The notes under the pieces were generated by a model, which searched no databases, was not told where the DNA came from, and was given only the letters and a program-made list of their open reading frames with translations. Made by a program: the position numbers and the translations under genes. A DNA stretch of 64,000 nucleotides. Source: Indolivaga macrotermitis. GTDB taxonomy: Bacteria > Bacteroidota > Bacteroidia > Bacteroidales > Dysgonomonadaceae. Location: assembly GCF_900128985.1 (NCBI RefSeq), contig NZ_FQUC01000002.1, positions 558,001 through 622,000 on the forward strand, in the 5' to 3' direction. Position 1 is the stretch's first letter. Every line of letters begins with the position of its first letter. Below, piece after piece: positions 6,935-62,275 of this stretch.

Positions 6935-7000
6935 CAAAAATAGAGGATTACCTTATATGAGTGGGGGAAAATAGGAAAGATTGGGTAGAAAATAGGAAAG
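6935..7000 (-). promoter_or_regulatory. Promoter of the GH89 operon with a 21-bp-spaced direct repeat (candidate HTCS site)
   Basis: On the minus strand the motif CCTATTTTC occurs twice, with its AAAAT/ATTTT cores at 6968-6972 and 6989-6993, exactly 21 bp apart. From the end of the CCCCC run (6963) there are 20 bp to TATTTTTG (6942-6935), a perfect match to the Bacteroidetes -7 box TAnnTTTG. Transcription would start near 6928, giving a leader of about 20 nt before the GH89 ATG. The same module with the same two spacings and relative orientation lies before susC at 11386-11446. I infer that this is the binding site of the HTCS encoded at 7102-11277. Confidence 0.7.
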
Positions 7001-7101
7001 CTGAAAATCCTTTCCCCGTTTTTTAGCTATTGAATCTGTACGGGCTTTTTCTTGTAAAAAAACCCATAACATAACACTATCGTTCTATTAATTATCGAGG
7101 G

Positions 7102-11277: not shown

Positions 11278-11385
11278 TGTAATCCCTGGCTTTTAAAATT
11301 CTCGTATAGGCTAATTTATGAAACAAAAGGTACAACTTTATTTTTAATTCCAAACTTCCCTTTCCATAACCAGAAGCCAACTATA

Positions 11386-11446
11386 CTATTTTCCCCTTCT
11401 TTTGCATCATTTTCCCCCTGCACCCAATATTATTGTTTTTAATTTG
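11386..11446 (+). promoter_or_regulatory. Promoter/operator module of the susC operon (21-bp direct repeat plus -7 box)
   Basis: CTATTTTCCCC (11386-11396) and TCATTTTCCCCC (11407-11418) form a direct repeat whose ATTTT cores start at 11388 and 11409, 21 bp apart. Exactly 20 bp after the last C (11418) lies TTAATTTG (11439-11446), one base off the Bacteroidetes -7 consensus. The arrangement copies the GH89 promoter module in spacing and orientation. If the call is right, transcription starts near 11453, leaving a leader of about 640 nt before susC. Confidence 0.6.
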
Positions 11447-11469
11447 CAGTAATCAAAACCTAAAATACC

Positions 11470-11517
11470 ATGAAAAAAAACCTTTTATTTTTTACCTTGA
11501 CCTACGCCTATTATTAA
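11470..11517 (+). CDS. Possible 15-residue leader peptide
   Basis: The ATG at 11470 opens MKKNLLFFTLTYAYY and stops at 11517. It begins about 17 nt after the predicted transcription start, the place where a leader peptide would sit. It looks like the first half of a signal peptide and is rich in Phe/Tyr. It may equally be chance or a remnant of a lost secreted-protein gene. A perfect palindrome covers its stop codon. Confidence 0.2.
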   Translation: MKKNLLFFTLTYAYY

Positions 11518-11523
11518 TAATAG
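11508..11523. repeat. Perfect 16-bp palindrome CTATTATTAATAATAG
   Basis: The sequence equals its own reverse complement over all 16 bases. It lies across the stop of the small leader ORF, about 55 nt into the predicted susC transcript. It could be a dimer-binding site or a weak RNA hairpin. At this AT content chance is not excluded. Confidence 0.4.
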
Positions 11524-11863
11524 TAAGGTACTACCTGAACGTGATGAAATTCATTTCATCTTTCCCCTTAAGCAATTAATAACTGATTAAAACAACTACG
11601 GCTTATGTAACAATATTTAACAATATATGATAACATTTGACAAAAGACCTGTAAACAGGTAATAGTACCTTGAGTCTGTCCAAACTCTAGTGAAATGATG
11701 TAAAACAGTTAAATAGAGATCGATTCCTTGAGTTTCACCTCACCAATAAACATAAAGTTTTCAGAGATTTAAACCAAACGAATAATATTCACCTAACAGT
11801 ATTAACTAATACCCGATATTAATGTGTAAAAAAAAACATTATAATAGAAGATTATTAAACACT

Positions 11864-11929
11864 ATGGATAGCCAACATGTAAAAAGGGATGATGAATTGG
11901 CTGCAAACATAAGAGAGATACTGAGGTAA
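11864..11929 (+). CDS. Possible 21-residue ORF in the susC leader
   Basis: The ATG at 11864 reads MDSQHVKRDDELAANIREILR, then TAA. It is hydrophilic and helix-prone but matches nothing I recognise. It could be a small regulatory peptide, the remains of an older gene, or chance. Confidence 0.12.
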   Translation: MDSQHVKRDDELAANIREILR

Positions 11930-12090
11930 CAGAATAAAGAATAATACTTTCTCTTGGTTTAGCTATAACAGAAGGCTTTAATGTCGCCCCGAAGTTATTA
12001 TTGAACAAAATCTAAACAGACTCTTATACTCCCGAAATAATTTATGAATACAGATAAAGAAAACTAAGTCTCTAATTAAATCTCAATTTT

Positions 12091-15000
12091 ATGCAGAATG
12101 TACATATAAGAAGAAAAAGAACATTTACCCGGAGGATACTCCTAATTGTGTTCTTGATAAGCAGTACCCTGGCATTTGCCCAAAACAGGGTTTCAGGTAC
12201 TGTTTCTGACCAGACAGGTGATCCCCTGCCGGGAGCCAACGTATCGGTGGCAGGTACTACAAACGGTGTTATGACCGATTATAACGGTAAATATTCAATA
12301 GAAGCAGAGAAAGGGCAAACCCTTGTCTTTTCTTTTCTTGGTTTTATTCAACAAGAAATAAAAGTAAGTCAGAATGTAATCAACATCACATTGGAAGAAG
12401 ACTCTAAAACTCTCGATGAAATCGTGGTAGTTGGTTATGGTGTCATGACCCGTAAAGATGTAACCAGTTCTATAACTACAGTAGGAGCAGAAAAACTGAA
12501 CGTAGGTGTTTACTCCGATCCGGCACAACTTCTGCAAGGTAAAGTTCCGGGACTGACTATAACGCAAAGTAGTAACCCCAACGCTTCGCCCACTGTCACT
12601 TTACGTGGGGCTTCGACCTTACGTACCGGAGCAGCTATGGAGCCATATTATGTAATAGACGGTATTCCGGGTATGTCACTATCGCTGATCGCACCGGATG
12701 ATATTGAGAGTATAGATGTATTGCGCGATGCAACTGCAACTGCCATCTATGGATCGAAAGCTGCCAATGGTGTGATCATAGTGACTACCAAGAAAGGCAA
12801 AGCCGGACATACAAGTATCAACTATAGTGCTTATGTGGCAATCGACAATGTCTTAAAGAATTACGATGTAATGAATGCCTCACAACTTCGCAAGTATGCT
12901 GAATCGGGAGGTATAGAACTGTTCAATGATCTGGGAGCCGATACCCGTTGGCAAGACGAGGTACAACGTACAGCATTCAGTCACAACCATAATTTATCAA
13001 TCAGTGGAGGTACAGACAAATCGGCCTATAATGCCAGCATTAACTATATGGAACGTCAGGGTGTTATCAAAGGTACAGACACAGATCGCATCATCGGACG
13101 GGCTTTTGTACAGACTACCGGATTGAAGGACCGTCTTACGCTCTCATTCAGTATCAATGGTAGTGTAACCAACAACAGCACTATCCCAACAGGCGACGAC
13201 GGAAGACAGGGAAAAAGCGTATTGGATGCCATGTATTATTATTCGCCGCTAGTTCCTGTCCGCAATGCAGATGGTAGTTGGTACGAAAACAGTAGTATTT
13301 CGCAAAACTATAACCCGGCAGCCTTGATTAATGAAAATATCTATGATACCGAAAGTAAGCGCCTACAAGGAAATGCCAAAGCTTCATTAAAAATCATAGA
13401 CGGGCTGCTTTACAATTTCAGCCTGGCTTATCAGAACGAAGAATATACTTACAGCAATTACAACACCACCAACTCTTTAATAGCCAGCGGCATGAACGGT
13501 AAGGCTCAACGCTCGTCCGTTACAAACAAAAAGAAAGTAATGGAAACCTACGTCAATTATGATAAAACATTTAACAAAGTTCATAAACTAGGTTTAATGG
13601 GCGGCTACTCGTGGGAAGAATCGAACGATAACGACGGTTTCCAAGTGACTACCTACGATTATTACAATGATGCTTTGACTTACCACAATATGGCCTTAGC
13701 TAATAAAATCGACAAGAACGGTTTAGGAGGCTGGGCTCTTTCTACTCTACGCATGATCTCGTTTTATGGTCGCGTCAACTACTCTTATGACAGCAAGTAC
13801 CTACTTCAGGCAACTGTTCGACGTGATGGCTCTTCTGCTTTCGGAGCAAACAACCGATGGGCTACATTCCCCTCTATATCCGGAGCATGGCGTCTTACTG
13901 AAGAAAACTTCATTAAAGACCTGAATATCTTTGATGATTTGAAATTACGTGTAGGCTATGGAGTAAGCGGTAACTCACTAGGCTTTGATGTATTTACAGC
14001 TACCCAACTTTATGGAGCGACAGGCTGGTACGAAAACCTGACCTCAACGGGCGAAACAGAACAAATACATATACTTGGTGCTACCCGCAATGCTAATCCC
14101 GATCTGAAATGGGAACGTACAGGCATGTTTAATATCGGTATAGACTTCGGATTCTTCAAGAACCGTTTGAACGGAACAATCGAATATTATGACAAACGTA
14201 CGAAAGACCTGATCGCCGATTATGCCGTTTCGACAACCAAATATCAGTACAACTGGCTGACAGCCAATGTGGGCGAAATCAGCAACAAGGGTATCGAACT
14301 TACGATCAATGCAATACCTGTAAAAACAAAAGACTTTATGTGGGAAACTTCAATAAACCTTTCGCACAACAAGAACAAGGTCGTTAAATTATCTAACAGT
14401 TCATATTCAGTCGACTATTTAGACAAAGGGAATGTCGATGCAGCAGGTTTTGCTACAGCAAATAACCAGCGTGTAATGGAAGGTTCTCCTATAGGCCAGT
14501 TCTATCTGTGGAAATGGGCAGGAGTAAAAGACGGTGTTTCGCACTTCTATGTATACGGCGAAAGCAGCCTCGAAGCGCTATATAAAGATCAGGGCGGATA
14601 TGATGGTAATGTGACCAAACAAGCCGACGGCCGTTATATCGATAATGCAACCGGAGAATATGTAACAACCAGCAGCCCATTGTATGACGACCGTGCAAAA
14701 GCAGGTTCGGCACAACCAAAACTGACTGCAGGATGGAACAACTCGATCACTTATAAGAACTGGACATTGACTGCATTCGTTCAGGGAGTATTCGGAAACA
14801 AGATACTGAATGCATCGCGTGCCTACTTGAATAATATAGGTAATGTGACTGCCGGTAAAAACGTATTGGCTTCTATCGCAGATGAAAATCCGGTAACCGA
14901 CTATAACTCTCATGCACCATCCGACCGCTATCTTGAAAGTGGTACTTATGTGCGCCTGTCATCTCTATCTTTGGGATACAACTTCGGGTATATGAACGAA

Positions 15001-48295: not shown

Positions 48296-49516
48296 TTATT
48301 TCAAAGAACTAGCTATATTCAGTTTTTTTGCTAATTTATCCATTTCATTACTCAATTTCTGATCAGTTATCTGAGCATATATCTGAGTTGTTTTAATTTT
48401 CGTATGCCCTAATAATTTAGAGACACTCTCTATTGACATTCCCTCTGTAAGACAAAGGGTTCCAAAAGTATGTCTGGCACAATGGCTCGTTATTCTTTTG
48501 TTAATACCGCAAATATTAGTGATTTCGGATAAATACTCATTCATTTTTTGATTACTGATTATGGGTAATAATTCCCCATATTCCTGTAAATATTCATATT
48601 TCTTAAGAATAGCTATAGGTATATCTAACAAACGTACCTTATATGGAATTCCGGTTTTATTCCTGGTAGCCATAATCCATAGATGGCCATCAATATTTGT
48701 TCTAATTTTTTCTTTAGTCAGGTTCTGGAGATCAGAATACGATAAACCAGTAAAGGAGCAAAAAAGAAAAATATCTCTAACTCTTTCCAGCCGTTCTGAG
48801 GGCAATTTTTTATTATACAATGCGATCAATTCTGCTTTTGTTAGAAATGACCGTTCCTTTTTTTCAAAACTAATTTTAAAATTAGCAAATGGATCAGGAA
48901 AATACTCTCCGCTATTTTTTATGTAAAAGAATATAGCTCTCAAATGTTGGATGGTTTTCATCGCATTATTGTTTCCTGATTTATATTTACTTCGCAGAAA
49001 CTGATAAAAATTTTGAATAAAAACGGTGGTTATTTCTCGATAAGGCATATCTTTTACCTTATATGTTTTTTCCATAAATTCTGATAATCGTTTTTTTACT
49101 AATTCATATCTTAAGTAAGTAGTTCTCCTAACTGTCACTCCAACTTTTGATCTGTATTGTTCATTGAATTTATCGAAGTAATAGATGATAGTTTTACCCT
49201 TTTCTTCGAAACCCAATAGAATATTTTTGATTTTATCGGGACTGGCATACCCATCTATATCCATTAATTTATAATAGTACGTGACTATCTTTCCACGGAT
49301 CTTATCTAACATAGAGTTAATAGCGATTGCTTCTGCATTATTACCAATTGATTTTCCCCATTCATTATTCCACTCATCGGGATAAATTTCAAGCTTTGTG
49401 CTAAATTGAGAACGTTTTCCATCTATGGTAATTCTGCCCATTATGGCTACTTTCCCATTTTTCTTAGGGTTACTTCTCTTAATATAAAAAAGAATTTTAA
49501 AAGTACTTCGTCTCAT
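48296..49516 (-). CDS. IntDOT-type tyrosine integrase
   Basis: This 406-residue protein has an arm-binding N-terminal domain (about 1-95, FKILFYIKRSNPKKNGKVAIMGRITIDGKRSQFSTK), a SAM-like core-binding domain (about 110-205) and a catalytic domain. It shows SHCARHTFGTLCL and LLGHTKIKTTQIYAQI with the Tyr nucleophile. The first catalytic Arg is replaced: FTGLSYSDLQNL has Ser where most have Arg, as described for IntDOT of CTnDOT. The gene is read toward the orphan tRNA fragment 119 bp away. It probably belongs to an element nested in, or fused with, the tRNA-Asp island. Confidence 0.92.
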   Translation of the reverse strand: MRRSTFKILFYIKRSNPKKNGKVAIMGRITIDGKRSQFSTKLEIYPDEWNNEWGKSIGNNAEAIAINSMLDKIRGKIVTYYYKLMDIDGYASPDKIKNILLGFEEKGKTIIYYFDKFNEQYRSKVGVTVRRTTYLRYELVKKRLSEFMEKTYKVKDMPYREITTVFIQNFYQFLRSKYKSGNNNAMKTIQHLRAIFFYIKNSGEYFPDPFANFKISFEKKERSFLTKAELIALYNKKLPSERLERVRDIFLFCSFTGLSYSDLQNLTKEKIRTNIDGHLWIMATRNKTGIPYKVRLLDIPIAILKKYEYLQEYGELLPIISNQKMNEYLSEITNICGINKRITSHCARHTFGTLCLTEGMSIESVSKLLGHTKIKTTQIYAQITDQKLSNEMDKLAKKLNIASSLK

Positions 49517-49964: not shown

Positions 49965-52900
49965 CTATTCTTCCTCAACTGCTATTCTTCCTCTAATCTT
50001 TTCATCTTTATCAAGAGTATATAATCCTGATATATTAAGTCTTCCAATGTGATCTTCTTTACGAGAATAATTCCCAATAATTTGCTTTTCGCCGTATACA
50101 TTCCAAATAAGTACAAGGCTATTTTTATCAAGCCATTCTAATAGGGGCTGTTTCTTTATTAAAAGTCCCGAGATACCCTTATTATTAACAGAAGGGTCAA
50201 AGCAAATGAGTTCTCCTATATCATTAATAAATTCAGCATCGTTAGAAGAATAATTTAGATTTAATCCATCCGCTATAATTTGTGAAGGATAATAATATTG
50301 TATAGCCATTTCTTTTGAACAATCGAATTCTTCTTCCCAATTAAAGAATTCTGTTGTTCTCCGCACTTTAGTTATTGCATTTTTATATCTGTTTTTAGTT
50401 ATTTCACTCCAATCTTCTCCTTCATAATATGGTTTATTAAAGAACTTGAATGCTGGTGACCAATAATATTCTCTACTAAATATTTGATATAAACTTCTTG
50501 TACTAGGGAATCTATCAATTTCAGTATAATTGCGTTTAAGCTTATTAATATCGCTCTTTGGAAGGAGATAACTTTGAATCTCCATCCATAAACGTTTATA
50601 TGATATATCATATTTATTTTCCCCAATAGGCGTTTCTTCATTCCATTCAGGATGAATTTCTAACCATATCCAATTTTCTCCTAGCTGATCAATAACCTCA
50701 ATAATATTTTCAGGTTTAGGAATATCGTTCCTGTCTTTTATCCATTCTTTTTTAGATGATGTACCAAAAACGAGTTCACGGTTAAACCACCATTGAGGTG
50801 GATATTTTTCATACTTGTCAGACTTCTTTTCTCTAATAATTATTGTAGGATCAATATCTCTAATATAGGGATACCATGGTCCATCATACAATATTGTTGA
50901 CTTTGGATTATCCCAATCAGATTCATCTGTTAAAGGGAATTGATCTGACACCCTTGCTAATAGTTCATAGAATACAATCCATTGATATTTTTTCCCTATT
51001 CGTTCATTATGTCCAGCATGCCTACCGGAACCTTGTCTTTTATCAAAATCTGTAAAAAGTTTAGGATCGTAGCCTAATTCAAAGATTCGCTGTATAGCGT
51101 AATTGCTTAATCCATTATAATTTACCTGCCAATCATCAAGTGCTCTCTGAAATACATAGCGTCCGAAATCTCCATATCCCCCTGTTCCTCGTCCATATTC
51201 TGTTGTCATCGAACGGAGAATCGCTGTTGAACCCCAAAGTTTTCCTGTATAATTACCAGTATCATCTTTAGGTTCATATTTATTATCTATAGCTTTATTT
51301 GAGGGAAAGCGAGATGGTAATTTTTTGCTTTTATATGGAGGTCTAACTTTTTTTGTATCGATTTTAATTTCTATATTGAAATATAATGCATATTCTATAA
51401 TTCCTCTGGCATAATCACGAAGTAAAATATGAGGGTATACTATCTTCGGCATGAAGATCTGATTATATACATATTCGGCTAAATTCTTTATACTATTTTT
51501 ATCTACTGAATGTAGAGTGCATCCGTAAGAGACTGCATATAATCGCTCTAGCACATAAGGATCATTTACATCTTTAAAATTGTCCAATAATACAAGAAGT
51601 AAATGCATTCTATCTTTTAAAATACATACTAGTGCCTTAGTTGCAGCATCTCTCAAATATCGATTTGCACTTACAAGAAACCAACTGAGCGTCGTACTTG
51701 TCAGAAGAATAGAATCATCACTTAAATATGATAACTCTTCTTCATCCCAAGCCCAATCAATTAGTCGTTGAATAGAACTGATATTATACTTTTCATTTTT
51801 ATATTTATTTTGGAGCCAGATTGTCCATGTTAAATCTCTTTCACTAAGTGAAAATTGCATTAAGTATGAATGGATTCTTTCAGCATTAAAATAAAAATTA
51901 GGTTTTACGGAAACCGAAAGAGTTGTTTCAAAGAAATCATCAAAGAGATGGTCATTATAAAGAATGACATCATTAACATAAGAACTAACTTCGTCACTAA
52001 TTCTCTCAACCTTACGCCATATTAAAGATTGGATAAAAGCTTTAGCTATTAAATCATATTGTTTTAGGCTTGGTATAAGTTCAAATAGCTCTTTGTTAAT
52101 TTTTTCTGGTAATTGAATAGATAATGCTTCAATCAAATTTTGGTTACGATACAATGATCTAGAATCTTTCACTATCTCAAATAGTCGCCCTGATTTAAAA
52201 GAAGATTCGGGATGATCTAGATTTAAATATTTCTCTAATAAGGAAGAAACAGTAAAATGGTCTTGAAAGCGTTGATAAGCTAAATATATAACATCGAAAT
52301 ATTTACCTTTTTCATCCCAATGTAAATTTTTATTAAATACTCCTTCTGATATCAGTCTATTTAAATAAGGCTCTCTTTTAGAACATTGGTCCTTAAATAA
52401 CTCATTAATAATCTTATTTGCTTCTTGATAGGGTACATAGTCGACTTCATTATCTATCGTATATAGTATGATATCATTAACAGCCTGTTTAACCAAATTT
52501 AGATTTTCATCAAAAAATAAATTTTCAGGTTTAGAAAGTTTATAATTAATGCTAGATAAAAAAGTGTCTATAATATTTGTTATCCCTTCATATCCTAAAG
52601 GTACTTCGTGTAAACCTTGTTCATGAAGAGAAAGACAATATAACTTTAGGAATAAGGGATTATGAAATTCGGGATTCAATAATGGTGTAGATGGAAGAGT
52701 TATATCATAATACTTAAAGAACAATTTTACTGCTTCATATTCATTATCTGCAAAACCATCATGCTGAATCTTTTGAATTAAATCTAAGTTTATTTCTTTC
52801 TCTGGGGCTATTAGTTTGAAGTAAGAATCTCTTATGCTAACAACTAATCCTAACCAAGGGTATCTTTTTATAGATTTAATAAAGCTCTTTAAATTTTTAG

Positions 52901-54218
52901 GCCATATATCTCGTCCTTCTCCTTCATTTAAAGCATCAATAAATATTATAATTCTACTCTGGTTACTTCCTGCTTTTGCATTTAATGCACCTAAAAATGT
53001 TAACTCGTCAATATTTTGCTTCCGTAGAAAATTATTTAAGATTTGTGTCCATGGAAGCTCTTTTGTAGAGAAATGTTCTCCTAAAATGAGTAAGCTTTGT
53101 TGTCCTTTTTCTTTTCTTTTGTTGATAATATCGGCTAGCAAATGAGATTTTCCACATCCGGCCTCACCCCATATCATAAGAAAAGGATTATTGGATAAAC
53201 TACAAGTTATTCCATTATAAAAGGATTGCAATTCATGTAATTCATATCCAAAATTTCGGATTCCACTAATTTCGTGATTATAAGCGCGATTATAATAGTC
53301 TGTTTTCTCTTTTCCTTTTTCCTGTTTATCCCTAAGTTCTTCCAGTTGATCTTCAATGTTAGAAGATATAGTGGAGAGCTCCTCTAACAGACAGTTTAAC
53401 TTGTCGTATGATATTAAGTCGTTATTCAGAAATTCAATACTTTCATAGAGAATACGGATTTTTTTAATTTCTTCATCTAATTGTTTTACTAATGTTTTGA
53501 TAGTATCATTATCAATTGCTATACGAATTTTTCTGTAATTTTCTAATAGCTTATTGTATTTAGTATCATGTTGTGTCTTAAAATCTTTGTCTCTTGATAG
53601 CCCATCAAATATTTTAGCTATAGGTAATTCAAAATTTAATTCTTTAGAATATCTTGCTCCCAAAGCATTAATACTCTCTTCATTTTTATAATCAAACCAG
53701 TCATCTGAAAATTCCTCTTGATTAAACCAAAAATATTTGAGGCCTTCATGTTCTTTTTTTGATAATCTTTCGACTAACTCAAAATTTCCCCAATATATAA
53801 TTTCAATCTCTTTTCCAAGCACCGTTTGTGAGTGTATTTTCCATTCTTTGACCTTTGACATCCATTTTTCTAACATCGATTTCTGACCTTTTACTTTAGC
53901 ATCAGGTCTATCTATGGGTAAACATATATAATATTTAGATAAAAAAGGGTGGCTATCGATCGCTGTTTTTATAGATTTTTCAATTTGAGACCATTGGGTA
54001 GTAGATAAACTGGCTGTAAAATATTTTGCTTGCCACATTATAAGTGATCCATCTTCTAATTCCCAATAACATTCTTTTCCGCCATCAGGTTTACCTATTC
54101 TAAAAAAATGTTTCTTGGTTTTTAGATCCTCTTGTTCCGCTAACTGGCATATTAACTCTTCAAATCCATCATTGAGACTATTGTTTAAGGGTCTTATATT
54201 ATTCCAATTTATAGACAT
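49965..54218 (-). CDS. Avs-like antiviral STAND NTPase with N-terminal PD-(D/E)XK nuclease
   Basis: This is a 1417-residue protein. Residues 1-150 carry a restriction-endonuclease-like fold of the Cap4/Mrr kind: FEELICQL (Glu20/21), RIGKPDGGKEC (Asp45) and WQAKYF (Gln63-x-Lys65). A coiled-coil linker follows (about 215-320). The P-loop NTPase has Walker A WGEAGCGKSHL (Lys357), Walker B RIIIFIDALNEGEG (Asp428) and VVSIRDSYF as sensor, and then a very long helical C-terminus (about 620-1417). Avs proteins are prokaryotic NLR-like sensors: the C-terminus binds a phage protein such as terminase or portal, the NTPase assembles and the nuclease cuts DNA. The ligand here is unknown. It is the last gene of the Gabija operon, 27 bp after the 613-residue nuclease gene. 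Confidence 0.82.
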   Translation of the reverse strand: MSINWNNIRPLNNSLNDGFEELICQLAEQEDLKTKKHFFRIGKPDGGKECYWELEDGSLIMWQAKYFTASLSTTQWSQIEKSIKTAIDSHPFLSKYYICLPIDRPDAKVKGQKSMLEKWMSKVKEWKIHSQTVLGKEIEIIYWGNFELVERLSKKEHEGLKYFWFNQEEFSDDWFDYKNEESINALGARYSKELNFELPIAKIFDGLSRDKDFKTQHDTKYNKLLENYRKIRIAIDNDTIKTLVKQLDEEIKKIRILYESIEFLNNDLISYDKLNCLLEELSTISSNIEDQLEELRDKQEKGKEKTDYYNRAYNHEISGIRNFGYELHELQSFYNGITCSLSNNPFLMIWGEAGCGKSHLLADIINKRKEKGQQSLLILGEHFSTKELPWTQILNNFLRKQNIDELTFLGALNAKAGSNQSRIIIFIDALNEGEGRDIWPKNLKSFIKSIKRYPWLGLVVSIRDSYFKLIAPEKEINLDLIQKIQHDGFADNEYEAVKLFFKYYDITLPSTPLLNPEFHNPLFLKLYCLSLHEQGLHEVPLGYEGITNIIDTFLSSINYKLSKPENLFFDENLNLVKQAVNDIILYTIDNEVDYVPYQEANKIINELFKDQCSKREPYLNRLISEGVFNKNLHWDEKGKYFDVIYLAYQRFQDHFTVSSLLEKYLNLDHPESSFKSGRLFEIVKDSRSLYRNQNLIEALSIQLPEKINKELFELIPSLKQYDLIAKAFIQSLIWRKVERISDEVSSYVNDVILYNDHLFDDFFETTLSVSVKPNFYFNAERIHSYLMQFSLSERDLTWTIWLQNKYKNEKYNISSIQRLIDWAWDEEELSYLSDDSILLTSTTLSWFLVSANRYLRDAATKALVCILKDRMHLLLVLLDNFKDVNDPYVLERLYAVSYGCTLHSVDKNSIKNLAEYVYNQIFMPKIVYPHILLRDYARGIIEYALYFNIEIKIDTKKVRPPYKSKKLPSRFPSNKAIDNKYEPKDDTGNYTGKLWGSTAILRSMTTEYGRGTGGYGDFGRYVFQRALDDWQVNYNGLSNYAIQRIFELGYDPKLFTDFDKRQGSGRHAGHNERIGKKYQWIVFYELLARVSDQFPLTDESDWDNPKSTILYDGPWYPYIRDIDPTIIIREKKSDKYEKYPPQWWFNRELVFGTSSKKEWIKDRNDIPKPENIIEVIDQLGENWIWLEIHPEWNEETPIGENKYDISYKRLWMEIQSYLLPKSDINKLKRNYTEIDRFPSTRSLYQIFSREYYWSPAFKFFNKPYYEGEDWSEITKNRYKNAITKVRRTTEFFNWEEEFDCSKEMAIQYYYPSQIIADGLNLNYSSNDAEFINDIGELICFDPSVNNKGISGLLIKKQPLLEWLDKNSLVLIWNVYGEKQIIGNYSRKEDHIGRLNISGLYTLDKDEKIRGRIAVEEE

Positions 54219-54245
54219 GTTTCAAAGTAATTATATAATAGAAAA

Positions 54246-56087
54246 TTATATTCCTAGTATTTGTTTTAATAAATCTTTCTTTTCAGGATATTTTTCAAGA
54301 ATTTCTGTAGTGTCGTAGAATTCTTTCCTGAACTCATTCATTCGCTCATTATCAATATTATTCTCCTTTTTAAATTTTTGGATGTTTTTAGGAGTTCTTA
54401 GTTTAAGTTTCTTACATAATTCAGAAGTTACAAAAGCTGGTATTGAAACTTCAAATTTAGAATCCAAATACAACTCATTCTTAAAACCAAATCCTCCATG
54501 ATAATAAAGGTCATCAAAAAGATGACAAACATCGGGAGAAGTGATATATATTTCGTCTCTATTACAATGTTGAATAAAAACCTGTCGTTGCATTATGAAA
54601 TAACCTACAATATCCAATTCATCTGAGCATATTAATCTTTCATGCAACTTTTCACGATTGATCAAATATGTTATTAACTCTCCGACTGCATTTTCTTTTC
54701 TTGATATTGTTAATAAAATTGATTCTAAATCATCGATTGAAACAGACCATGGGTAAAATGCATTTCCTTCCTTCTCCAATAGCAAACCAAGATCGCATTG
54801 TATTTGACCAAAACGCTCCTGTGTTACTAGGATGATAAAAGCGTTTTCAATCTTATTAGTTTTTATACATTCTATTTCATTTTTATTTTTATCTGAAATA
54901 GTTAATTCTTTTCCATTGTAAATTGCAGATTGGACTTCCAACGCTTGGTCATATGCCTTTTGAATAGATGTTTTAAATTCCCGCTCTGTTCTTTTATACG
55001 ATTTTTCTACATCCCGAAAAGGCTCTTTGTATAGATCAGCTTTGCATTCTATTATAAATGCGGTTCTCCGATAAAAGATTAAAATATCCTTTTCATTATC
55101 TTTTCCATTAATATAATAATTCGTAAATATTTTAATTTCATCTTGAGGTAGAAAATCCGTGAAAACATCTATAGTCTTTTCCTCTAAATATATTGCTCTT
55201 GATCTATCACTATTTTTACCAGACTTATCTTTACATACATTATATAGAAGATTATAAATGGATATGATCAATTGATTATTAAAAAACAAAACATATCGAT
55301 TATTTGGAAGCTGTATTATTGGTTTATTCAACAGTTCACATGAGTCAGTATAATATAAATAATCCAAATTAGAAGTTTGTTTAAGTGATAATAAGGATAA
55401 GATTTTTTTTACTTTAGATTTATCTAGTCTTTTATAATCATCAATCGAAAATGTCTGTTGATTTACAAGATCGAAAGATATAAATTTGGTATCACTTTCA
55501 TTTTCAAAACTAGGATAGCAATATGTGCCATCGGCATTTTTATCTACATCTTGACTGATAAAATTGGAATAACATTCCATGAATTTTAGAGTTGATATTT
55601 GTGTCGTTTCAAAATAAAATGTTATTAAATCATTTATGCTAATGTTTATAGATTCAGAAATAAAATCTTCAAGAGATGAGAAGGTTCCTTGAATTCGTTC
55701 TATTACCTGTTCAACATATACTAAAGAAGCGTTGAGAAAGTAGTTAAGGTAGGTCGTTTGTGCCACTAAATTCTTTCTATAAGTTTCTCCGTAATAATCT
55801 ACAACTTCTTTGAAATCATATTGTTCTTTATAGTATTTTTCAATATTATCCAGCATCTCTACGATCTCAGAAAAACTATAAATAGAGTCCTTTCCCTTTC
55901 TAGAATTGGATAAACTCAAATTTATTAAATATGTCATTTGTCTGACTATAGAGGGTAATCGAATAAACTTACTCTCTGTTTTCATTTGACAATTGAAAAA
56001 GAATATCCACAATGGAATAGCTTTATTTATATCAAATTGGGATATATATACTTTCAGATTGCTTGATTGCTGTTCTATATTTTGCAT
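54246..56087 (-). CDS. PD-(D/E)XK nuclease-fold protein of unfamiliar type, third gene of the Gabija operon
   Basis: This is a 613-residue protein. The N-terminal 280 residues are helical and unlike anything I can name. A nuclease core follows with LEEKTIDVF (Glu302/303), NEKDILIFYRRTAFIIECKADL (Asp334, Glu347-x-Lys349) and conserved-looking strands to about 480. The last 100 residues are basic and helical (CKKLKLRTPKNIQKFKKENNI). The D...ExK set is complete, so DNA cleavage is likely. It lies 9 bp after gajB and 27 bp before the STAND gene, so it is co-transcribed with both. Gabija normally has two genes only; this one is an extra subunit, or with the STAND gene a separate system. Confidence 0.72.
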   Translation of the reverse strand: MQNIEQQSSNLKVYISQFDINKAIPLWIFFFNCQMKTESKFIRLPSIVRQMTYLINLSLSNSRKGKDSIYSFSEIVEMLDNIEKYYKEQYDFKEVVDYYGETYRKNLVAQTTYLNYFLNASLVYVEQVIERIQGTFSSLEDFISESINISINDLITFYFETTQISTLKFMECYSNFISQDVDKNADGTYCYPSFENESDTKFISFDLVNQQTFSIDDYKRLDKSKVKKILSLLSLKQTSNLDYLYYTDSCELLNKPIIQLPNNRYVLFFNNQLIISIYNLLYNVCKDKSGKNSDRSRAIYLEEKTIDVFTDFLPQDEIKIFTNYYINGKDNEKDILIFYRRTAFIIECKADLYKEPFRDVEKSYKRTEREFKTSIQKAYDQALEVQSAIYNGKELTISDKNKNEIECIKTNKIENAFIILVTQERFGQIQCDLGLLLEKEGNAFYPWSVSIDDLESILLTISRKENAVGELITYLINREKLHERLICSDELDIVGYFIMQRQVFIQHCNRDEIYITSPDVCHLFDDLYYHGGFGFKNELYLDSKFEVSIPAFVTSELCKKLKLRTPKNIQKFKKENNIDNERMNEFRKEFYDTTEILEKYPEKKDLLKQILGI

Positions 56088-56096
56088 ACTATTATA

Positions 56097-58088
56097 TTAT
56101 TGAACATTAATTATTTCCCATTTATCATTTTGATTATTTAATTCGCCAAACAAACGATTAAACCGATCTTCATGAATCGCAATACACAATAAATGAGTAG
56201 GTCTTGATAATCCAACATATGCCATTCTTGCCGATTCCTTTATCCTAACTCCTAGATTATTATTAACGACTATTGGATTTCCTAAAAATTGGGGTGATAA
56301 TCTTTCGGATTCATAAGATCTATAATAATATGACTCTAAATATAATGTTGCAGAATGAGTTTGTCCCTTCGATGCATGCACATTTGATATTTCGATTTCA
56401 ACATCTTCATCTTTAATAGTATTAGGAGTTTCCGTTTCTAAATCTATAACTTCTCCTAAATCTTCCGATTCAATAAAGTTCTTTGAATTAACTATCTGAG
56501 TATTGAATACTTTTAAAAAAGTTGGAATATATGTCTTTATATTTTCCAATACAGTTGACGTTCTACCTTTGACAATATCAATAGACCAATTGTATAGATT
56601 AAGAGAAAATTGTTCTTGAAATTGAATGTTATTTACTTCACTATATTCTTTTATCTTATTTATCAGTGTATTTCGCGTATAATTTCGACTTTTAGAATCT
56701 GTAGAATTTTCAAGCCTTAGTATTCTTAGTAAAGCATTCAATATAGATGTTCTTATAACATTCAGAGTGTGTTTTTTTCTGTCATAAAATACGAGATATG
56801 ATTTCAAATTAGGATAATCAATGTTTATTTTATGAATTTGACTACTAAAATCAATATAATCAGCTAATCTTATTTTATCTACGTCATTATTATCTTCTTC
56901 TGTTTTCCAAATAGTATTCCATGCTATGACCTTAATTGGATATTTATATTTGCCATTATCATTCTTTTCTTTTATAATATTTGCAAAATCTATATTTTGA
57001 TCTTTTATTCTTTTAATTAAATTAATAAACTCAGGTATCACATTCTTTATCGTTTCGTTTGAATATTTTAATATATAGAGCTTAATGTTACAACGATTTA
57101 AACCTATAACATTGAATCCATCAGGTCTGTGTAATGCAAAACAATTAACCAAATCTGAAATATTAGCACTCAACCTGTGACTACCATTCAATGTTAAAAG
57201 CTTGGTCCTATCAACCCATATATTATGAAATCGGATATCGCCATTAAAGATTGCTTGATTTTTATCTCCAATACGTTGGTATCTCGACTTACTATTTGCA
57301 TTGTCATAAAATATATTTTCGAGAATATTATATTGATGAATATCCATATCTTGCATTTCATCAATAAACACATAGGAAAATCTTCTTTGTAGTAAATTTT
57401 TTAATTGAGGGTGTTTTTCCAAATAAGATTTTGCAAATGTATACGCATCATTAAAGTTCAAAATTCCAGTGTTTAATAATTCCTTTTTCGTTTTTACTAG
57501 ATTAACATATGTTGGTGTTGTCACTCCTAAATTCGGAATAATTATTGGCTCCTTTGTGTAGAAATGGCTAATCGTTTGATCTACTATAGTAAATTCTTCA
57601 ATGAAAGAAGAATATCTATTTCCAAAACGATGTTCTAATCCTGATCTATATTTTATTGGATATTTATGATTAAATTGCTCATTAAAAATATCATTATCTA
57701 TTCTAACTGGTTTATGTTTTTTCCATTGAGCATAATAGGGTATTGCTAAAAATCCATCAACGAAACTTTGTATTGTTCCGATAAAATTAGGATATGAAAA
57801 TAACTTAGGGCAATATTTCTGAATTCTTATTTTTATTTCATCTACTGCTGCATTTGTATGAGAAATAACTAAAATGCCACAACCATTGTCTAAAGGTAAT
57901 TTCCTTTCTAATATAAGTAATTTTGCTAGAAGAACTGTCGTTTTCCCACTTCCATGAACTGCCTGCAGATCTAGAGTGCCCAGATCTTTTATGAACAGCC
58001 TTCTTTCATCGTCAAAGTTAGAGCCATTCAAAAGAATCTTTTCGGCATATAATATATCATCATCAGTGATACTAATTTCCTGTGGCAT
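56097..58088 (-). CDS. gajB: GajB-like UvrD/SF1 helicase (Gabija)
   Basis: This 663-residue SF1 helicase has Walker A LQAVHGSGKTTVL (Lys49), motif Ia ISHTNAAVDEI, motif II FIDEMQDMD (Asp243/Glu244), motif III IGDKNQAIF, motif V NVHASKGQTHSATL and motif VI AYVGLSRPTHLL. In Gabija, GajB binds the GajA nuclease tetramer, senses DNA ends and hydrolyses NTPs. The gene overlaps the 3' end of the GajA frame by 17 bp, typical of gajAB. It is longer than the best-known GajB (about 490 residues), mainly in the region between motifs III and V. All helicase motifs are intact. Confidence 0.88.
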   Translation of the reverse strand: MPQEISITDDDILYAEKILLNGSNFDDERRLFIKDLGTLDLQAVHGSGKTTVLLAKLLILERKLPLDNGCGILVISHTNAAVDEIKIRIQKYCPKLFSYPNFIGTIQSFVDGFLAIPYYAQWKKHKPVRIDNDIFNEQFNHKYPIKYRSGLEHRFGNRYSSFIEEFTIVDQTISHFYTKEPIIIPNLGVTTPTYVNLVKTKKELLNTGILNFNDAYTFAKSYLEKHPQLKNLLQRRFSYVFIDEMQDMDIHQYNILENIFYDNANSKSRYQRIGDKNQAIFNGDIRFHNIWVDRTKLLTLNGSHRLSANISDLVNCFALHRPDGFNVIGLNRCNIKLYILKYSNETIKNVIPEFINLIKRIKDQNIDFANIIKEKNDNGKYKYPIKVIAWNTIWKTEEDNNDVDKIRLADYIDFSSQIHKINIDYPNLKSYLVFYDRKKHTLNVIRTSILNALLRILRLENSTDSKSRNYTRNTLINKIKEYSEVNNIQFQEQFSLNLYNWSIDIVKGRTSTVLENIKTYIPTFLKVFNTQIVNSKNFIESEDLGEVIDLETETPNTIKDEDVEIEISNVHASKGQTHSATLYLESYYYRSYESERLSPQFLGNPIVVNNNLGVRIKESARMAYVGLSRPTHLLCIAIHEDRFNRLFGELNNQNDKWEIINVQ

Positions 58089-59913
58089 ATTTTATCGCAT
58101 CAAGTAAATATTTAATTGAAGTTTCTCTTTCCAGCATATCCTTTGTTATACATTCTTTCTCTATAAAACATGCTAAATATTGGGCTATAATAGCTTTAGA
58201 TATCTTCTTCCCATCGCCGATGAAATCATTATAAAGAGATTTACTAATTTCAATATCGTCAGCTTTCCCATCAGTATACTCTTTCCATGTTTGAGTTATT
58301 AATTTCCCTGTATAACCAGCTTCTGTCATTTCTCTCCCAGCTTTTTTTATAGCTACAAATAAAATAAGGTTAAGTTTTTGTGCTATTCCCAGACAATACT
58401 CCAACGTCTTGTGAGGGGAAACGAATGTATGAACAGTATCTCCATTATATTTCTGTTCCTTTACATCTTTCTTATATATTTTTTTTGTTTTTCCAGGAAT
58501 AGGACTTGGCAGATTTTCTTCATCTATATCTACATCAAGATCAGTTATAATCGCAACTGGAATTTTGAATTTTGGATAAACACCATCCTTTCTTTGGAAT
58601 ATTCTGGAATAACGAAGAAATGATGTGTTTTACACATTAATTACAGACACTTTTCTTTCTGTGAGATTCAACCCTATCTTTTTGGCTAAAGCTGGAATAA
58701 GTATTTCTTCAGACCATCCCTCTACAAAAATAATACCCTTAGCAAAAAACAAATTAGCCTTTGTCGTATCTAAAAATCTTTCCAAAAAAGAATAATCTGT
58801 TTTCTCTAATTTTGTATAATCAGCTCCTAAAGGATAAGCCTGCCCTTGATCACAAACAATTAAATTTTCAAGTTTTACTTTTGATGCGAGATTAGGACTA
58901 TGTGTAGTCAGAATTAATTGTATATTTTTTTCTTCTTGTAATGTTTCTATTACTTGCATTTGTGCCTGAGGATGCAAATGTGCTTCAAGTTCTTCTATAA
59001 GCCCTAATCTTAAGCCTGTCCATTTAGCTTTATTTAAATGTAATAATTCCGCAGCCATGAACAATCGGTTGAGGGTACCAAGACCAGGATGAGAATCGTT
59101 TGCCAGTGATAGTGTTAATTTCTCCAAAACACTTTTCATATCATTAGATGTTGCTTCAAAGAGAGTATTGTAAATATCACTTCCATAAAACAAACGAATA
59201 TAATTGTCTATTTTTTGTTTAATATCTTTGCCTTCTTGCGGACAATGGATGACTTGTCCATCACCATTTGTGATTTCAAATTCCCCTTTAAAATATTTCT
59301 CTAACTGAATTTTTAAATCATTGAATATTCTAACCAATTCATGATCTTTATTTTTACCTTTAAAAGCCTCATCTCCCAATAATATCTGTGATAGTCTAGA
59401 GTTCTTCTTCGCAATTAATTCGTTCTCAGCATCTCTTAAAGGCTTAAGATATGTAGTTTTTAAATATTCTCTAGCTTCTGCAGTCAACACACTGCCTTCA
59501 TCATCTACTCCGGCCTTAATATCCCCAACTAATACTCTTTGATCTTTCATTTTACCTTCATAAACAAGTCTAAGGTATGGTTCTGCAGATTCATTATTAC
59601 CAATCCATCCTAACCATTCGGTAAAATTTTTTGCTTCACTTGGTGTTAAATCACTAAATAGAAGCTCAATTCTCAAGTGTTTTCGATCCTGATAAAAATC
59701 TCTCTCTTCTACTTTTATATATTCAAAACTATGAGTTCTTAAAACTAATTTTATTGCATCTATTATTGCTGTTTTACCCGAATCATTTTCTCCAACTATG
59801 ACGTTCAGCCCCTTAGAGAAGTTTAAATCTAAATTAGGTTGACTTAGGTCAATAAATATTTCATTTGATCCAAATTTTCTAAAATTCCAGAGTTTTATAT
59901 TTGAAAGATACAT
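58072..59913 (-). pseudogene. gajA: gajA (OLD-family ATPase/TOPRIM nuclease) broken by one in-frame TAA
   Basis: The same frame runs from ATG 59913 to the stop at 58072 (613 sense codons) with a single internal stop at codon 428 (58632-58630). Downstream of it the frame continues NTSFLRYSRIF, ITDLDVDIDEE (Asp457, Asp459), VSPHKTLEYCLGIAQ and the C-terminal helices of GajA. The stop falls between the first TOPRIM motif (FVEGWSE, Glu398) and the DxD motif, splitting the nuclease active site. The stop sits where family members usually have Gly in VxNVGxT. No slippery or known read-through context is seen. Without suppression the Gabija nuclease would be lost. A base-call error is an alternative. 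Confidence 0.8.
58630..59913 (-). CDS. gajA: GajA N-terminal part: OLD-type ABC ATPase with truncated TOPRIM
   Basis: This 427-residue frame is the product expected if the internal stop is respected. It has a complete ABC-type ATPase: Walker A IVGENDSGKTAI (Lys47), a long insertion (about 90-290), Walker B LGLIEELEAHLHPQAQ and the His switch LILTTHSPNLAS. It ends just after the first TOPRIM element FVEGWSEEILIPAL. The ATPase could still fold and bind GajB, but not cut DNA. It starts the operon of gajA, gajB, the 613-residue nuclease gene and the STAND gene. Confidence 0.8.
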   Translation of the reverse strand: MYLSNIKLWNFRKFGSNEIFIDLSQPNLDLNFSKGLNVIVGENDSGKTAIIDAIKLVLRTHSFEYIKVEERDFYQDRKHLRIELLFSDLTPSEAKNFTEWLGWIGNNESAEPYLRLVYEGKMKDQRVLVGDIKAGVDDEGSVLTAEAREYLKTTYLKPLRDAENELIAKKNSRLSQILLGDEAFKGKNKDHELVRIFNDLKIQLEKYFKGEFEITNGDGQVIHCPQEGKDIKQKIDNYIRLFYGSDIYNTLFEATSNDMKSVLEKLTLSLANDSHPGLGTLNRLFMAAELLHLNKAKWTGLRLGLIEELEAHLHPQAQMQVIETLQEEKNIQLILTTHSPNLASKVKLENLIVCDQGQAYPLGADYTKLEKTDYSFLERFLDTTKANLFFAKGIIFVEGWSEEILIPALAKKIGLNLTERKVSVINV

Positions 59914-59941: not shown

Positions 59942-59949
59942 CAAAGATA
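59942..59949 (-). promoter_or_regulatory. -7 box of the Gabija operon promoter
   Basis: TATCTTTG on the minus strand is a full match to TAnnTTTG, 29 bp before the gajA ATG. No other promoter-like box is obvious before gajB, the nuclease gene or the STAND gene, whose spacing leaves no room, so this promoter likely serves all four. Confidence 0.55.
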
Positions 59950-60350: not shown

Positions 60351-60713
60351 TCAGTTAAGAGAAAAACAGTTACCAGTCATTAGAAAAGGAATCCTGATCC
60401 TTTCTGCGATAATCGTATCATATATCCACTTACGAAATATCTCCGAATTATGGGATTTAATTTTGAAAGACAGAGCAATAATAATTTCCAGATTATATAG
60501 CTCTACGGAATTTCCATTTTTATAATAATAAGTTTGGCATACTTTTGTATTATCAAGTACCTGGCTTTTAAGTATCGCGCGGATATTAGCGTTTACCTTC
60601 GAAATAAAGCATTCAAATAGATTGGCTATTTGATTAGCTGTCATCCATATCTCATTAAGCCCGGAAGGAATAATGACTTTGTTATTGACAATTGATATTG
60701 ATTCGGTCTTCAT
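60351..60713 (-). CDS. RhuM-like N-terminal domain protein next to the integrase
   Basis: This 120-residue protein resembles the start of RhuM-family proteins. The pattern is MTANQIANLFECFISKVNANIRAIL (HTH-like), then LDNTKVCQTYYYKNGNSVELYNLEIIIALSFKIKSHNSEIFRKWI, where RhuM has ...YNLDxIIxVGYRVxSxRxxxFRxW. RhuM proteins are much longer, so this is a short domain version or a 3'-truncated copy. It lies 15 bp after the integrase gene and is probably co-transcribed. Short RhuM-like genes often accompany Bacteroidetes element integrases; a role in DNA binding is inferred. Confidence 0.65.
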   Translation of the reverse strand: MKTESISIVNNKVIIPSGLNEIWMTANQIANLFECFISKVNANIRAILKSQVLDNTKVCQTYYYKNGNSVELYNLEIIIALSFKIKSHNSEIFRKWIYDTIIAERIRIPFLMTGNCFSLN

Positions 60714-60728: not shown

Positions 60729-61961
60729 TTATTGTTCCGAATGTGCGAAACATTTTTCTACTGTTGCCATATCACGCATGATAGAGCTATCTAGTACTTT
60801 CGCATAATGTTGTGTCATTTTTGTACTGGAATGCCCCAATATTTTAGCCACATTTTCCATAGAAACATTATTGGCTAAAAATACAATTGTGGCCGCTGTA
60901 TGCCGGGCGACGTGTGTTGTAAGCTTCTTCTTAATCCCACATAGATCAGCGATTTCCTTCAAATAACTATTGAGCTTTTGGTTACTCAATACAGGTAATA
61001 GCACACCTTTTTTTATGCACTCTGGATGATCTTTATATTTGTCTATCAGTTTTTTAGTAACCGAAAGTACAGGAATGTTACTCATATTACCTGTTTTCTG
61101 ACGAGGTTTGCGTATCCACAATGCACCATTATTGTCTTTCATCAAATGGTCTGGAGTCAGATTTTTGACATCTATGAACGTCAATGCTGTGAAGGAGCAG
61201 AAAACAAAAATATCCCGCACAAGTTCAAGTCGGGGTAGTTCGAATTCTTTATTCATAATTCTTTCGAGTTCTTCCTGCGTCAGAAATTCAACATGAGTTT
61301 CTTCGTGTTTGAACTGAATACCGAAGAAGGGATCTTTCTTGATCCAATCATTAGCCAAAGCTATCCGGACAACCTTTTTCAGATTCTTTAGATGTTTGAT
61401 ACTGGAATTATTCTGGCATTTGCGAACTGTCTTTAGATAAAAGTCAAAATCCGTTACAAACTGACCACTGAGCTCAGAGAGCAAAATATCATCTTTACCA
61501 TATTGATATTGTATGTATTCAATAAGGTGTGAAAGAGATATATCGAATTTTTCTACTGTAGAACGAGAATAATCGATCCCTATTAATGCTCTACATTTTT
61601 TATTATGCTCCCGATAAACATCACCAAGAGTCTTGCTGTCTTCGTCTTTTCCGTAAAAACTATCCCGTAAAGCTCTTGCCGTGATTCTCTTACCGTCAAT
61701 TTCAAACTCCCGATGAATTTGATACAGACGAGTTTTGATAGTTTCCAGATAATGGTTTAACTCTTTGTCCCGATGAAGTTTTCCGAGACTGCATTCCCGT
61801 CGCTGATCCCACATCTCAGGACGGACACTACGTTTAGTGGTGATGTCGGCGACTTCGCCATTTACTGTAATACGTAAATAAATAGAGGCTTCTCCGTTTT
61901 TAAGAAGCCGATGCTTTCTGATAACATAAAGCAAACTGAACGTTGTTTGAATTGCATGCAT
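60729..61961 (-). CDS. Tyrosine integrase of the tRNA-Asp island
   Basis: This 410-residue protein has an arm-binding domain (about 1-100, FSLLYVIRKHRLLKNGEASIYLRITVNGEVADITTKRSV), a SAM-like domain (about 110-210) and a catalytic domain with THVARHTAATIVF and ILGHSSTKMTQHYAKV. The first catalytic Arg is missing (FTALTFIDVKNL), as in IntDOT-type enzymes. Its start lies 241 bp from the tRNA-Asp 3' end, and the gap is full of repeats of CGTGGGCA type. This is the classical order tRNA-att-integrase, so it is the enzyme most likely to have inserted the island. Confidence 0.93.
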   Translation of the reverse strand: MHAIQTTFSLLYVIRKHRLLKNGEASIYLRITVNGEVADITTKRSVRPEMWDQRRECSLGKLHRDKELNHYLETIKTRLYQIHREFEIDGKRITARALRDSFYGKDEDSKTLGDVYREHNKKCRALIGIDYSRSTVEKFDISLSHLIEYIQYQYGKDDILLSELSGQFVTDFDFYLKTVRKCQNNSSIKHLKNLKKVVRIALANDWIKKDPFFGIQFKHEETHVEFLTQEELERIMNKEFELPRLELVRDIFVFCSFTALTFIDVKNLTPDHLMKDNNGALWIRKPRQKTGNMSNIPVLSVTKKLIDKYKDHPECIKKGVLLPVLSNQKLNSYLKEIADLCGIKKKLTTHVARHTAATIVFLANNVSMENVAKILGHSSTKMTQHYAKVLDSSIMRDMATVEKCFAHSEQ

Positions 61962-62177: not shown

Positions 62178-62201
62178 GCTTTGATTTTCGACTTGCGTCT
62201 G

Positions 62202-62275
62202 CGGTATGGACGGGACTCGAACCCGCGACCCCCTGCGTGACAGGCAGGTATTCTAACCAACTGAACTACCACACC
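62202..62275 (-). tRNA. tRNA-Asp (anticodon GTC)
   Basis: The minus strand folds fully as a cloverleaf. The acceptor is GGTGTGG with CCATACC (one G-T pair), and the anticodon stem is CCTGC/GCAGG with loop CTGTCAC, giving anticodon GTC. The T-arm is GCGGG TTCGAGT CCCGT, and the discriminator base is G73, as usual for tRNA-Asp. CCA is not encoded. Its 3' end is the insertion point of the 29.5-kb island. Confidence 0.96.

What the first reader, a model, noticed from the sequence alone, without database searches (positions are those of the whole stretch)
49965..59913. Four-gene operon joining Gabija with a new nuclease and an Avs-like STAND protein
Seen: four leftward genes with overlaps or gaps of 17 bp overlap, 9 bp and 27 bp and only one good promoter box (59942). 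They are gajA, gajB, a 613-residue PD-(D/E)XK protein and a 1417-residue STAND NTPase with its own nuclease. Known: Gabija is a two-gene system and Avs proteins usually act alone or with one helper. Inference: either two systems share one transcript, or the extra pair makes a composite system in which a STAND sensor and a second nuclease back up Gabija. The broken gajA makes backup plausible.
Basis: partly seen in the sequence, partly recalled or inferred. Interest (0 to 1): 0.78.

Follow-up and report, generated by a model that had tools for sequence, protein, structure and literature searches.

The report
Gabija locus with an add-on nuclease
Beside a bacterial anti-virus system called Gabija, whose first gene is interrupted here, sits a likely DNA-cutting enzyme whose relatives recur behind several unrelated bacterial immune systems, so it looks like a portable add-on rather than part of one four-gene machine.

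Summary
The four leftward genes are real and tightly packed (17-nt overlap, 9-nt and 27-nt gaps): gajA (cut by one in-frame stop), gajB, a 613-aa NERD-type PD-(D/E)XK protein, and an intact Avs2. The four-gene composite is not supported. No other locus examined has all four; 9 of 9 other Avs2 or Avs2-like loci examined lack the 613-aa gene; and the nearest copy of that gene (88%, Parabacteroides sp. PH5-46) lies behind a hipA-like gene and before only the first 29 codons of avs2. Of 29 full-length relatives, 10 have a PADLOC-recognised defence protein directly upstream on the same strand within 100 nt, and all 10 fall in one clade of 11. The systems differ: Gabija (5 loci, 4 GajA subtypes, one with an OLD-like ATPase in between), Wadjet (2), IetAS, SIR2-HerA, OLD-like ATPase. 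The 18 relatives outside the clade do not pass the rule (one unknown at a contig end), though a few have defence genes nearby. The window protein matches no PADLOC or NCBIfam model; its predicted fold matches only Upx significantly, and partially. Best reading: a portable accessory nuclease that joins defence operons; Avs2 is a separate system. No function was tested.

The parts
58630..59913 (-). gajA, first piece (427 aa): OLD-type ABC ATPase plus the start of the TOPRIM domain, ended by an in-frame TAA
   Evidence: PADLOC GajA PDLC00080 616.8 bits, profile 1-421 of 622; Pfam AAA_15 and OLD-like TOPRIM positions 1-40 of 67
58072..58629 (-). gajA, piece after the stop: frame open for 185 codons; the listed ORF in it starts only at 58404
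   Evidence: PADLOC GajA PDLC00099 82.8 bits, profile 430-620 of 626; translation of the piece on its own
56097..58088 (-). gajB, UvrD-like helicase (663 aa), intact
   Evidence: PADLOC GajB PDLC00146 709 bits, profile 2-663 of 663; Pfam UvrD-helicase
54246..56087 (-). 613-aa NERD-type PD-(D/E)XK protein: helical N-terminal half, nuclease core about residues 290-425 with E302, D334, E347-x-K349 and Q381, then a C-terminal helical part
   Evidence: Pfam NERD; AlphaFold model, mean pLDDT 76.8, helix-three-strand-helix core; these positions invariant in 26 aligned rows except one alanine at 347
49965..54218 (-). avs2, STAND NTPase (1417 aa), intact
   Evidence: NCBIfam NF041813 Avs2 1376 bits, cut-off 1000; PADLOC Avs2 PDLC02162 covers residues 1-1415; solved Avs2 9o4e E 1.2e-248
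59942..59949 (-).
   Evidence: one of 12 TAnnTTTG copies on this strand in 10.3 kb, no -33 match
60729..61961 (-). tyrosine recombinase beside tRNA-Asp; likely part of the carrying element
   Evidence: Pfam Arm-DNA-bind_5, Phage_int_SAM_5, Phage_integrase; tRNA-Asp 62201-62275
48296..49516 (-). second tyrosine recombinase, on the other side of the four genes
   Evidence: Pfam Phage_integrase, Arm-DNA-bind_5

Best explanation
Two defence systems and a portable accessory gene share one tightly packed array on a likely mobile island. Directly behind Gabija (gajA gajB) sits a NERD-type PD-(D/E)XK nuclease from a clade whose members repeatedly attach behind unrelated defence operons (Gabija, Wadjet, IetAS, SIR2-HerA, OLD-like ATPase). 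An intact, separate Avs2 follows it. Shown: anatomy, clade, recurrent upstream partner, conserved active site. Inferred: the nuclease adds a second DNA-cutting step to whichever system it is transcribed with, acting on DNA which that system has engaged (for Gabija, free DNA ends) rather than through one dedicated partner, since the partners share no common protein. Inferred for this window: because the gajA stop removes most of the TOPRIM nuclease domain from the first product, Gabija itself is probably impaired here, and the NERD protein and Avs2 are the likely remaining working nucleases.
For: Ten of 29 full-length relatives have a PADLOC-recognised defence protein as the immediate upstream same-strand gene within 100 nt. 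All 10 fall in an 11-member clade (94/93 support; inner 9-member clade 100/98, 9 of 9 linked); the label needs 2 changes on the tree against a shuffled mean of 8.4, reached by 0 of 500 shuffles. Gabija: window, L017, L020 and L021, L072, with four different best GajA models. JetD of Wadjet: L023 and L081. HerA behind a SIR2-domain gene: L032. IetAS: L073. OLD-like ATPase: L026, and in L020 between gajB and the nuclease. L026, L032 and L023 are 66, 62 and 54% identical to L021, yet these four sit behind four different systems. Active-site positions are conserved in 25 of 26 rows. The 60 nt before the nuclease start codon are not visibly alike in window and L015, while the genes are 88.7% identical in DNA.
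Against: No phage, biochemical or transcript data. The label looks upstream only; downstream genes were scanned for some loci, and L017, L023 and L032 have further same-strand genes behind the nuclease, so it is not simply the last gene of an operon. The clade was recognised after labelling. The window and L015 join it on a long branch (1.38, 94/93). Outside the clade some relatives also have defence genes close by: L022 lies in one run of genes with a type I restriction subunit three genes upstream, L086 lies before SIR2-HerA, L024 before a STAND gene. The few other Gabija loci examined lack the gene: 0 of 4 GajB-like hits in 199 genomes, about 1.5 kb looked at on each side, and 0 of 2 plasmid loci. 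Defence genes cluster anyway and no matched control gene was run. In L026 the 347 position is alanine.
Confidence: 0.55

Rival explanations
1. The 613-aa protein is a self-sufficient single-gene defence (Upx-like) that merely sits behind other operons and is expressed with them; it has no functional link to Gabija.
For: Nineteen of 29 relatives do not pass the link rule (one of them unknown at a contig end), including conjugative-element copies L018, L019, L030 and plasmid copy L005. The only match below E 0.001 of two models in the PDB is Upx (9wuf, E 4.6e-5 and 2.1e-4), which I recall as a single-gene defence.
Against: The directly linked position is confined to one clade.
Confidence: 0.3
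2. The nuclease and avs2 form a two-gene unit (nuclease plus STAND sensor) that came to lie behind Gabija.
For: In L015 the nuclease gene (88% identical protein) is followed after 28 nt (27 in the window) by the first 29 codons of avs2, with no Gabija upstream. In L024 a relative is followed 60 nt on by a 1318-aa nSTAND protein with an LmuA-like N-terminus.
Against: Nine other Avs2 or Avs2-like loci examined have no such nuclease. The L024 STAND protein shows no significant similarity to the window Avs2 (best E 0.034). In L015 avs2 is cut off while the nuclease frame stays open.
Confidence: 0.12
3. All four genes are one composite system in which the STAND sensor and second nuclease back up Gabija.
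For: Tight packing on one strand.
Against: No other locus with all four among those examined; the nuclease and Avs2 occur separately elsewhere.
Confidence: 0.03

Closest known systems
Gabija (GajA-GajB)
   Same: gajA and gajB are adjacent and match PADLOC GajA and GajB strongly
   Different: gajA is interrupted by a stop, and a NERD-type nuclease gene follows; published Gabija is described as GajA and GajB (PMC10822852 and PMC10681800, starts of abstracts seen in a search listing)
Avs2 (AVAST type 2)
   Same: match above the NCBIfam equivalog cut-off and to a solved Avs2
   Different: nothing unusual seen in the protein itself; only its place behind Gabija and the nuclease
Upx (PDB 9wuf)
   Same: only Foldseek match below E 0.001 for two family models
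   Different: Upx chain is 1212 aa against 613; TM-score by query 0.34 and 0.41 with rmsd above 10, so only parts superpose; no sequence-profile match in the PDB set
Auxiliary or backup nucleases beside BREX and OLD-ABC ATPases (PMC12839542, section 35 part 1 of 2 read)
   Same: idea of extra PD-(D/E)XK nucleases attached to defence operons, including OLD-ABC ATPases paired with PD-(D/E)XK nucleases
   Different: that section treats BREX and related systems; here one nuclease clade is found behind Gabija, Wadjet, IetAS and SIR2-HerA

Membership tests
Gabija | GajA: OLD-type ABC ATPase with TOPRIM nuclease domain in one protein | tested here: not met
   ATPase present, but a stop codon leaves only positions 1-40 of 67 of the Pfam TOPRIM domain on the first piece
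Gabija | GajB UvrD-like helicase directly downstream | tested here: met
   709 bits over the whole profile, 17-nt overlap with the gajA frame
Gabija | defence against phage or plasmids | not testable with these tools
   no experiment
Avs2 | match above the curated equivalog cut-off | tested here: met
   NF041813 1376 against 1000; PDLC02162 covers residues 1-1415 of 1417
Avs2 | N-terminal nuclease effector | tested here: inconclusive
   PADLOC Avs2 models cover the N-terminus, but no Pfam nuclease domain reached 0.001
Avs2 | recognition of phage large terminase | not testable with these tools
   reported for Avs families 1-3 (passage of PMC12724215 seen)
NERD / PD-(D/E)XK nuclease | Pfam NERD above gathering score | tested here: met
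   25.2 against 22.1 for the window protein; 10 of 21 members match at E 0.01
NERD / PD-(D/E)XK nuclease | conserved D...ExK site on the predicted core | tested here: met
   E302, D334, K349, Q381 in 26 of 26 rows, E347 in 25 of 26
NERD / PD-(D/E)XK nuclease | nuclease activity | not testable with these tools
   no experiment
Upx | sequence match to a known defence profile | tested here: not met
   no PADLOC match for the window protein at 0.1, and no Upx-named family among the 6 families that single members matched; no PDB sequence match of note. That PADLOC holds an Upx model is recalled, not checked
Upx | same overall fold | tested here: inconclusive
   E 4.6e-5 and 2.1e-4 but TM 0.34 and 0.41 by query, rmsd 12.8 and 10.8

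The most novel reading that the evidence does not exclude
The nuclease is a shared, interchangeable extra component of Gabija, Wadjet, IetAS and SIR2-HerA: a common 'finisher' that unrelated ATPase-driven defences recruit, an exchangeable effector layer that I did not see described for Gabija or Wadjet in the searches made.
Probability: 0.3. Interest if true: 0.72.

Novelty: new variant of a known kind. Interest (0 to 1): 0.5.

Why it matters
Gabija and Wadjet are usually treated as fixed gene sets. A nuclease clade that repeatedly lies directly behind both, and behind IetAS and SIR2-HerA, would mean that effector layers can be exchanged between systems, would give a gene to add to defence annotation, and makes it testable whether these systems hand DNA on to a common nuclease. 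In the window it also warns against reading one packed array as one machine.

Tried and rejected
Four-gene composite: rejected on the neighbour survey. Nuclease as the strict last gene of its operon: rejected on re-reading, since L017, L023 and L032 have further same-strand genes behind it; my confidence was lowered from 0.60 to 0.55 for this and for L022. Promoter argument: the TAnnTTTG box is not distinctive and the sigma-70 scan shows no excess. Island ends: a search for a direct repeat of the tRNA-Asp region found only 12-base matches; the flank search in 6 genomes of the genus gave no usable empty site. A pattern scan of viral contigs (146 stretches, none confirmed) and the phage records gave no relatives. 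Sequence searches of the PDB with the protein and with the profile gave nothing of note (one hit at E 0.95). The L024 STAND protein is not a detectable relative of the window Avs2.

Rows dropped before the tree of 29: L006 (archaeal, distant), L012/L014/L065 (truncated, G439), L027 (contig end, like L018), L028, L035 and L037 (interrupted), L039 (partial), and distant or partial hits L004, L066-L070, L074, L075, L078-L080, L082. Same loci fetched more than once: L002/L007/L018, L003/L009/L030, L011/L013/L023/L076, L063/L072, L064/L073, L062/L071, L077/L081, L083/L087, L084-L085/L086. L071 was labelled unlinked although its upstream side lies beyond the contig end. Outside the clade the upstream genes of 10 loci and of L034 were scanned with PADLOC at 1e-6; L005, L036, L038, L086a, L086b and L087 fail by strand or by a gap over 100 nt. 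The hipA-like gene upstream of L015 was scanned with Pfam only and counted as unlinked. For Wadjet only JetD of both loci and JetC of L023 were scanned; the other Jet genes were named by eye. The Fisher p value printed rests on a clade chosen after seeing the labels and is not used.
Full report
What is there. Four genes run leftward from 59913 to 49965 with a 17-nt overlap and gaps of 9 and 27 nt. The first is gajA, the second gajB (PADLOC 617 and 709 bits). The third encodes 613 residues with a Pfam NERD domain just above the gathering score (25.2 against 22.1) and no PADLOC or NCBIfam match. The fourth is an intact Avs2 (1376 bits against an equivalog cut-off of 1000; solved relative 9o4e at E 1.2e-248). 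gajA is interrupted by one TAA codon at 58632-58630. The first piece carries the ATPase and positions 1-40 of the 67 of the Pfam TOPRIM domain; the frame stays open after the stop, and that 185-residue piece alone matches the rest of the GajA profile (82.8 bits). This looks like one recent nonsense change or a sequencing error; the data cannot tell which. Two tyrosine recombinases (48296-49516, 60729-61961) and a tRNA-Asp (62201-62275) flank the genes, and G+C per kb is 0.27-0.33 from 44 to 61 kb against 0.376-0.384 on either side, so the array sits in a likely mobile island whose ends I could not fix.

The 613-aa protein is most likely a nuclease. A model of the window protein (mean pLDDT 76.8) and one of its relative in L021 (88.7) show a helical N-terminal half, a helix-strand-strand-strand-helix core and a helical C-terminal part. 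E302, E332, D334, K349 and Q381 are invariant in 26 aligned rows and E347 in 25 (one alanine, L026). Foldseek against the PDB gave one match below 0.001 for each model, Upx (9wuf; E 4.6e-5 and 2.1e-4), with low TM-scores (0.34 and 0.41 by query length), so the relation is partial. I recall Upx as a single-gene anti-phage protein; two searches showed no paper on its structure (15 of 145 listed, none with the word Upx; 2 papers, one mention each).

Where its relatives live. The family is rare: 4 of 101 relatives of the source genome (own included, one weak), 3 of 395 phylum genomes (own included), 8 of 299, 5 of 248, and, at E 1e-30, 4 of 346 in further draws that overlap in part; 2 of 72,556 plasmid records and 0 of 50,697 phage records at 1e-5; 25 loci from a pattern scan of a collection of 84,980 genomes. 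Twenty-nine full-length proteins went into a tree. I called a protein 'linked' if the gene directly upstream, on the same strand and within 100 nt, is recognised by PADLOC as a defence protein. Ten are linked: window (GajB, 9 nt), L017 (GajB, about 28 nt, start codon unsure), L021 (GajB, 24 nt), L072 (GajB, 60 nt), L020 (OLD-like ATPase at 99 nt, itself behind gajA-gajB), L026 (the same kind of OLD-like ATPase, 86 nt), L023 and L081 (JetD of Wadjet, 10 nt and an 11-nt overlap), L032 (HerA behind a SIR2-domain gene, 8 nt) and L073 (IetS, 67 nt). The best GajA models differ: PDLC00080 in the window, PDLC00086 in L017, PDLC00079 in L020 and L021, PDLC00072 in L072. All 10 lie in one clade with L015 as the only other member; the label needs 2 changes on the tree against 8.4 for shuffled labels, and no shuffle of 500 was as low. 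Of the 18 proteins outside the clade 17 fail the rule and one (L071) cannot be judged at its contig end.

Against this: the clade was noticed after labelling; the rule looks upstream only; and the window-L015 pair joins the rest on a long branch with 94/93 support, while the inner nine (9 of 9 linked) have 100/98. Outside the clade defence genes are sometimes near without passing the rule: L022 lies in one run of same-strand genes with a type I restriction subunit three genes before it, one of the two L086 copies lies before SIR2-HerA, L024 before a STAND gene, and L034 before a gene with weak AbiO and Nhi matches. The nuclease is not always the last gene of its run: L017, L023 and L032 have further same-strand genes behind it. 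No matched control gene was run.

Within the clade the upstream position recurs while the partner changes. L026 (OLD-like ATPase), L032 (SIR2-HerA) and L023 (Wadjet) are 66, 62 and 54% identical to L021 (Gabija) yet sit behind four different systems. That is what a portable gene would look like. The partners share no protein; all contain an ATPase, and Gabija and Wadjet are known to act on DNA (recalled for Wadjet). The simplest mechanism is a second DNA-cutting step on DNA already engaged by the upstream system, with co-expression as the link; this is inference. For Gabija, a preprint proposes that it acts on linear DNA not occupied by RecBCD and blocks its circularisation (PMC12407980, abstract read), which would leave ends for such a nuclease.

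Avs2 is a separate matter. In six plasmid loci (of 76 plasmid records with a match) and three chromosomal loci (G622, G495 and G184, the last a weak match), 0 of 9 had the nuclease in the stretch fetched. Yet the nuclease-avs2 junction of the window is old enough to be seen twice: in Parabacteroides sp. PH5-46 (L015) the nuclease is 88% identical, the spacing is 28 instead of 27 nt, and avs2 breaks off after 29 codons. There the gene upstream is hipA-like (Pfam HipA_C), and the 60 nt before the nuclease start codon do not resemble the window's. So the nuclease and avs2 were neighbours at least once without Gabija, and one copy lost avs2 while its nuclease frame stayed open. A nuclease-STAND neighbour pair also occurs in L024, outside the clade, with a STAND protein that is not detectably related.

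The few other Gabija loci examined do without it: 0 of 4 GajB-like hits in 199 genomes of the family of G439 (about 1.5 kb looked at on each side, two of the four partial matches) and 0 of 2 plasmid loci had it nearby.

Novelty. In PADLOC-DB 2.0.0 the window protein has no match at 0.1, and in 20 relatives six families were matched by one member each, best E 0.0004; only the window protein was run against NCBIfam. Full-text searches for Gabija with NERD, with Avs2, with a third gene, with Wadjet and an accessory nuclease domain, and for a gene downstream of gajB showed no title or abstract start that describes it (5 of 5, 15 of 121, 4 of 4, 15 of 27, 0, 7 of 7 and 10 of 11 papers listed). The library holds open-licence papers only and most bodies were not read. 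The nearest idea seen in print is the set of auxiliary and backup nucleases reported beside BREX and OLD-ABC ATPases (PMC12839542, section 35 part 1 of 2 read). A review table lists NERD in Mokosh type I and Nhi-like systems (PMC10952713, passages seen). I therefore rate this a new variant of a known kind: known systems with a recurrent accessory gene that appears undescribed.

Noticed in passing
window 60351-60713: A 120-aa ORF upstream of gajA, on the same strand, matches part of RhuM/Bro-N-like families and PADLOC candidate PDC-S05 and looks truncated.
   Followed up: no
L024 4768-10494: A relative of the nuclease is followed 60 nt on by a 1318-aa nSTAND protein with an LmuA-like N-terminus, a second nuclease-STAND neighbour pair not detectably related to Avs2.
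   Followed up: partly
L086 5869-12897: Two copies of the nuclease family lie about 3.4 kb apart in one genome; one is followed by a SIR2-HerA pair (HerA 600 bits, SIR2 327 bits).
   Followed up: partly
L088 and L089: Two loci with an L021-like gajB carry a different gene of several hundred residues directly behind it instead of the nuclease, so the slot behind gajB may be used by other add-ons.
   Followed up: no
L098 (Segatella copri plasmid) 4240-14010: The best plasmid match to the window GajB is followed by a DUF2971 gene and then a NACHT-domain gene, another Gabija-like locus with a STAND-type gene nearby.
   Followed up: no
L026 nuclease: The otherwise conserved E347 position is alanine in this one relative, which sits behind an OLD-like ATPase; it may be a dead copy.
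   Followed up: no
L014 8135-8881: G439 holds only the C-terminal part of the nuclease gene as an open frame, a likely remnant.
   Followed up: no
L020 9388-11166: A dCTPase-type defence gene (545 bits) lies convergent to the Gabija-ATPase-nuclease array.
   Followed up: no
G000:C23:202708-203847, outside the window: The source genome has another strong AAA_15 (OLD-type) match, 287 bits, with a TAG stop inside the frame, so a second gene of this kind may be interrupted.
   Followed up: no
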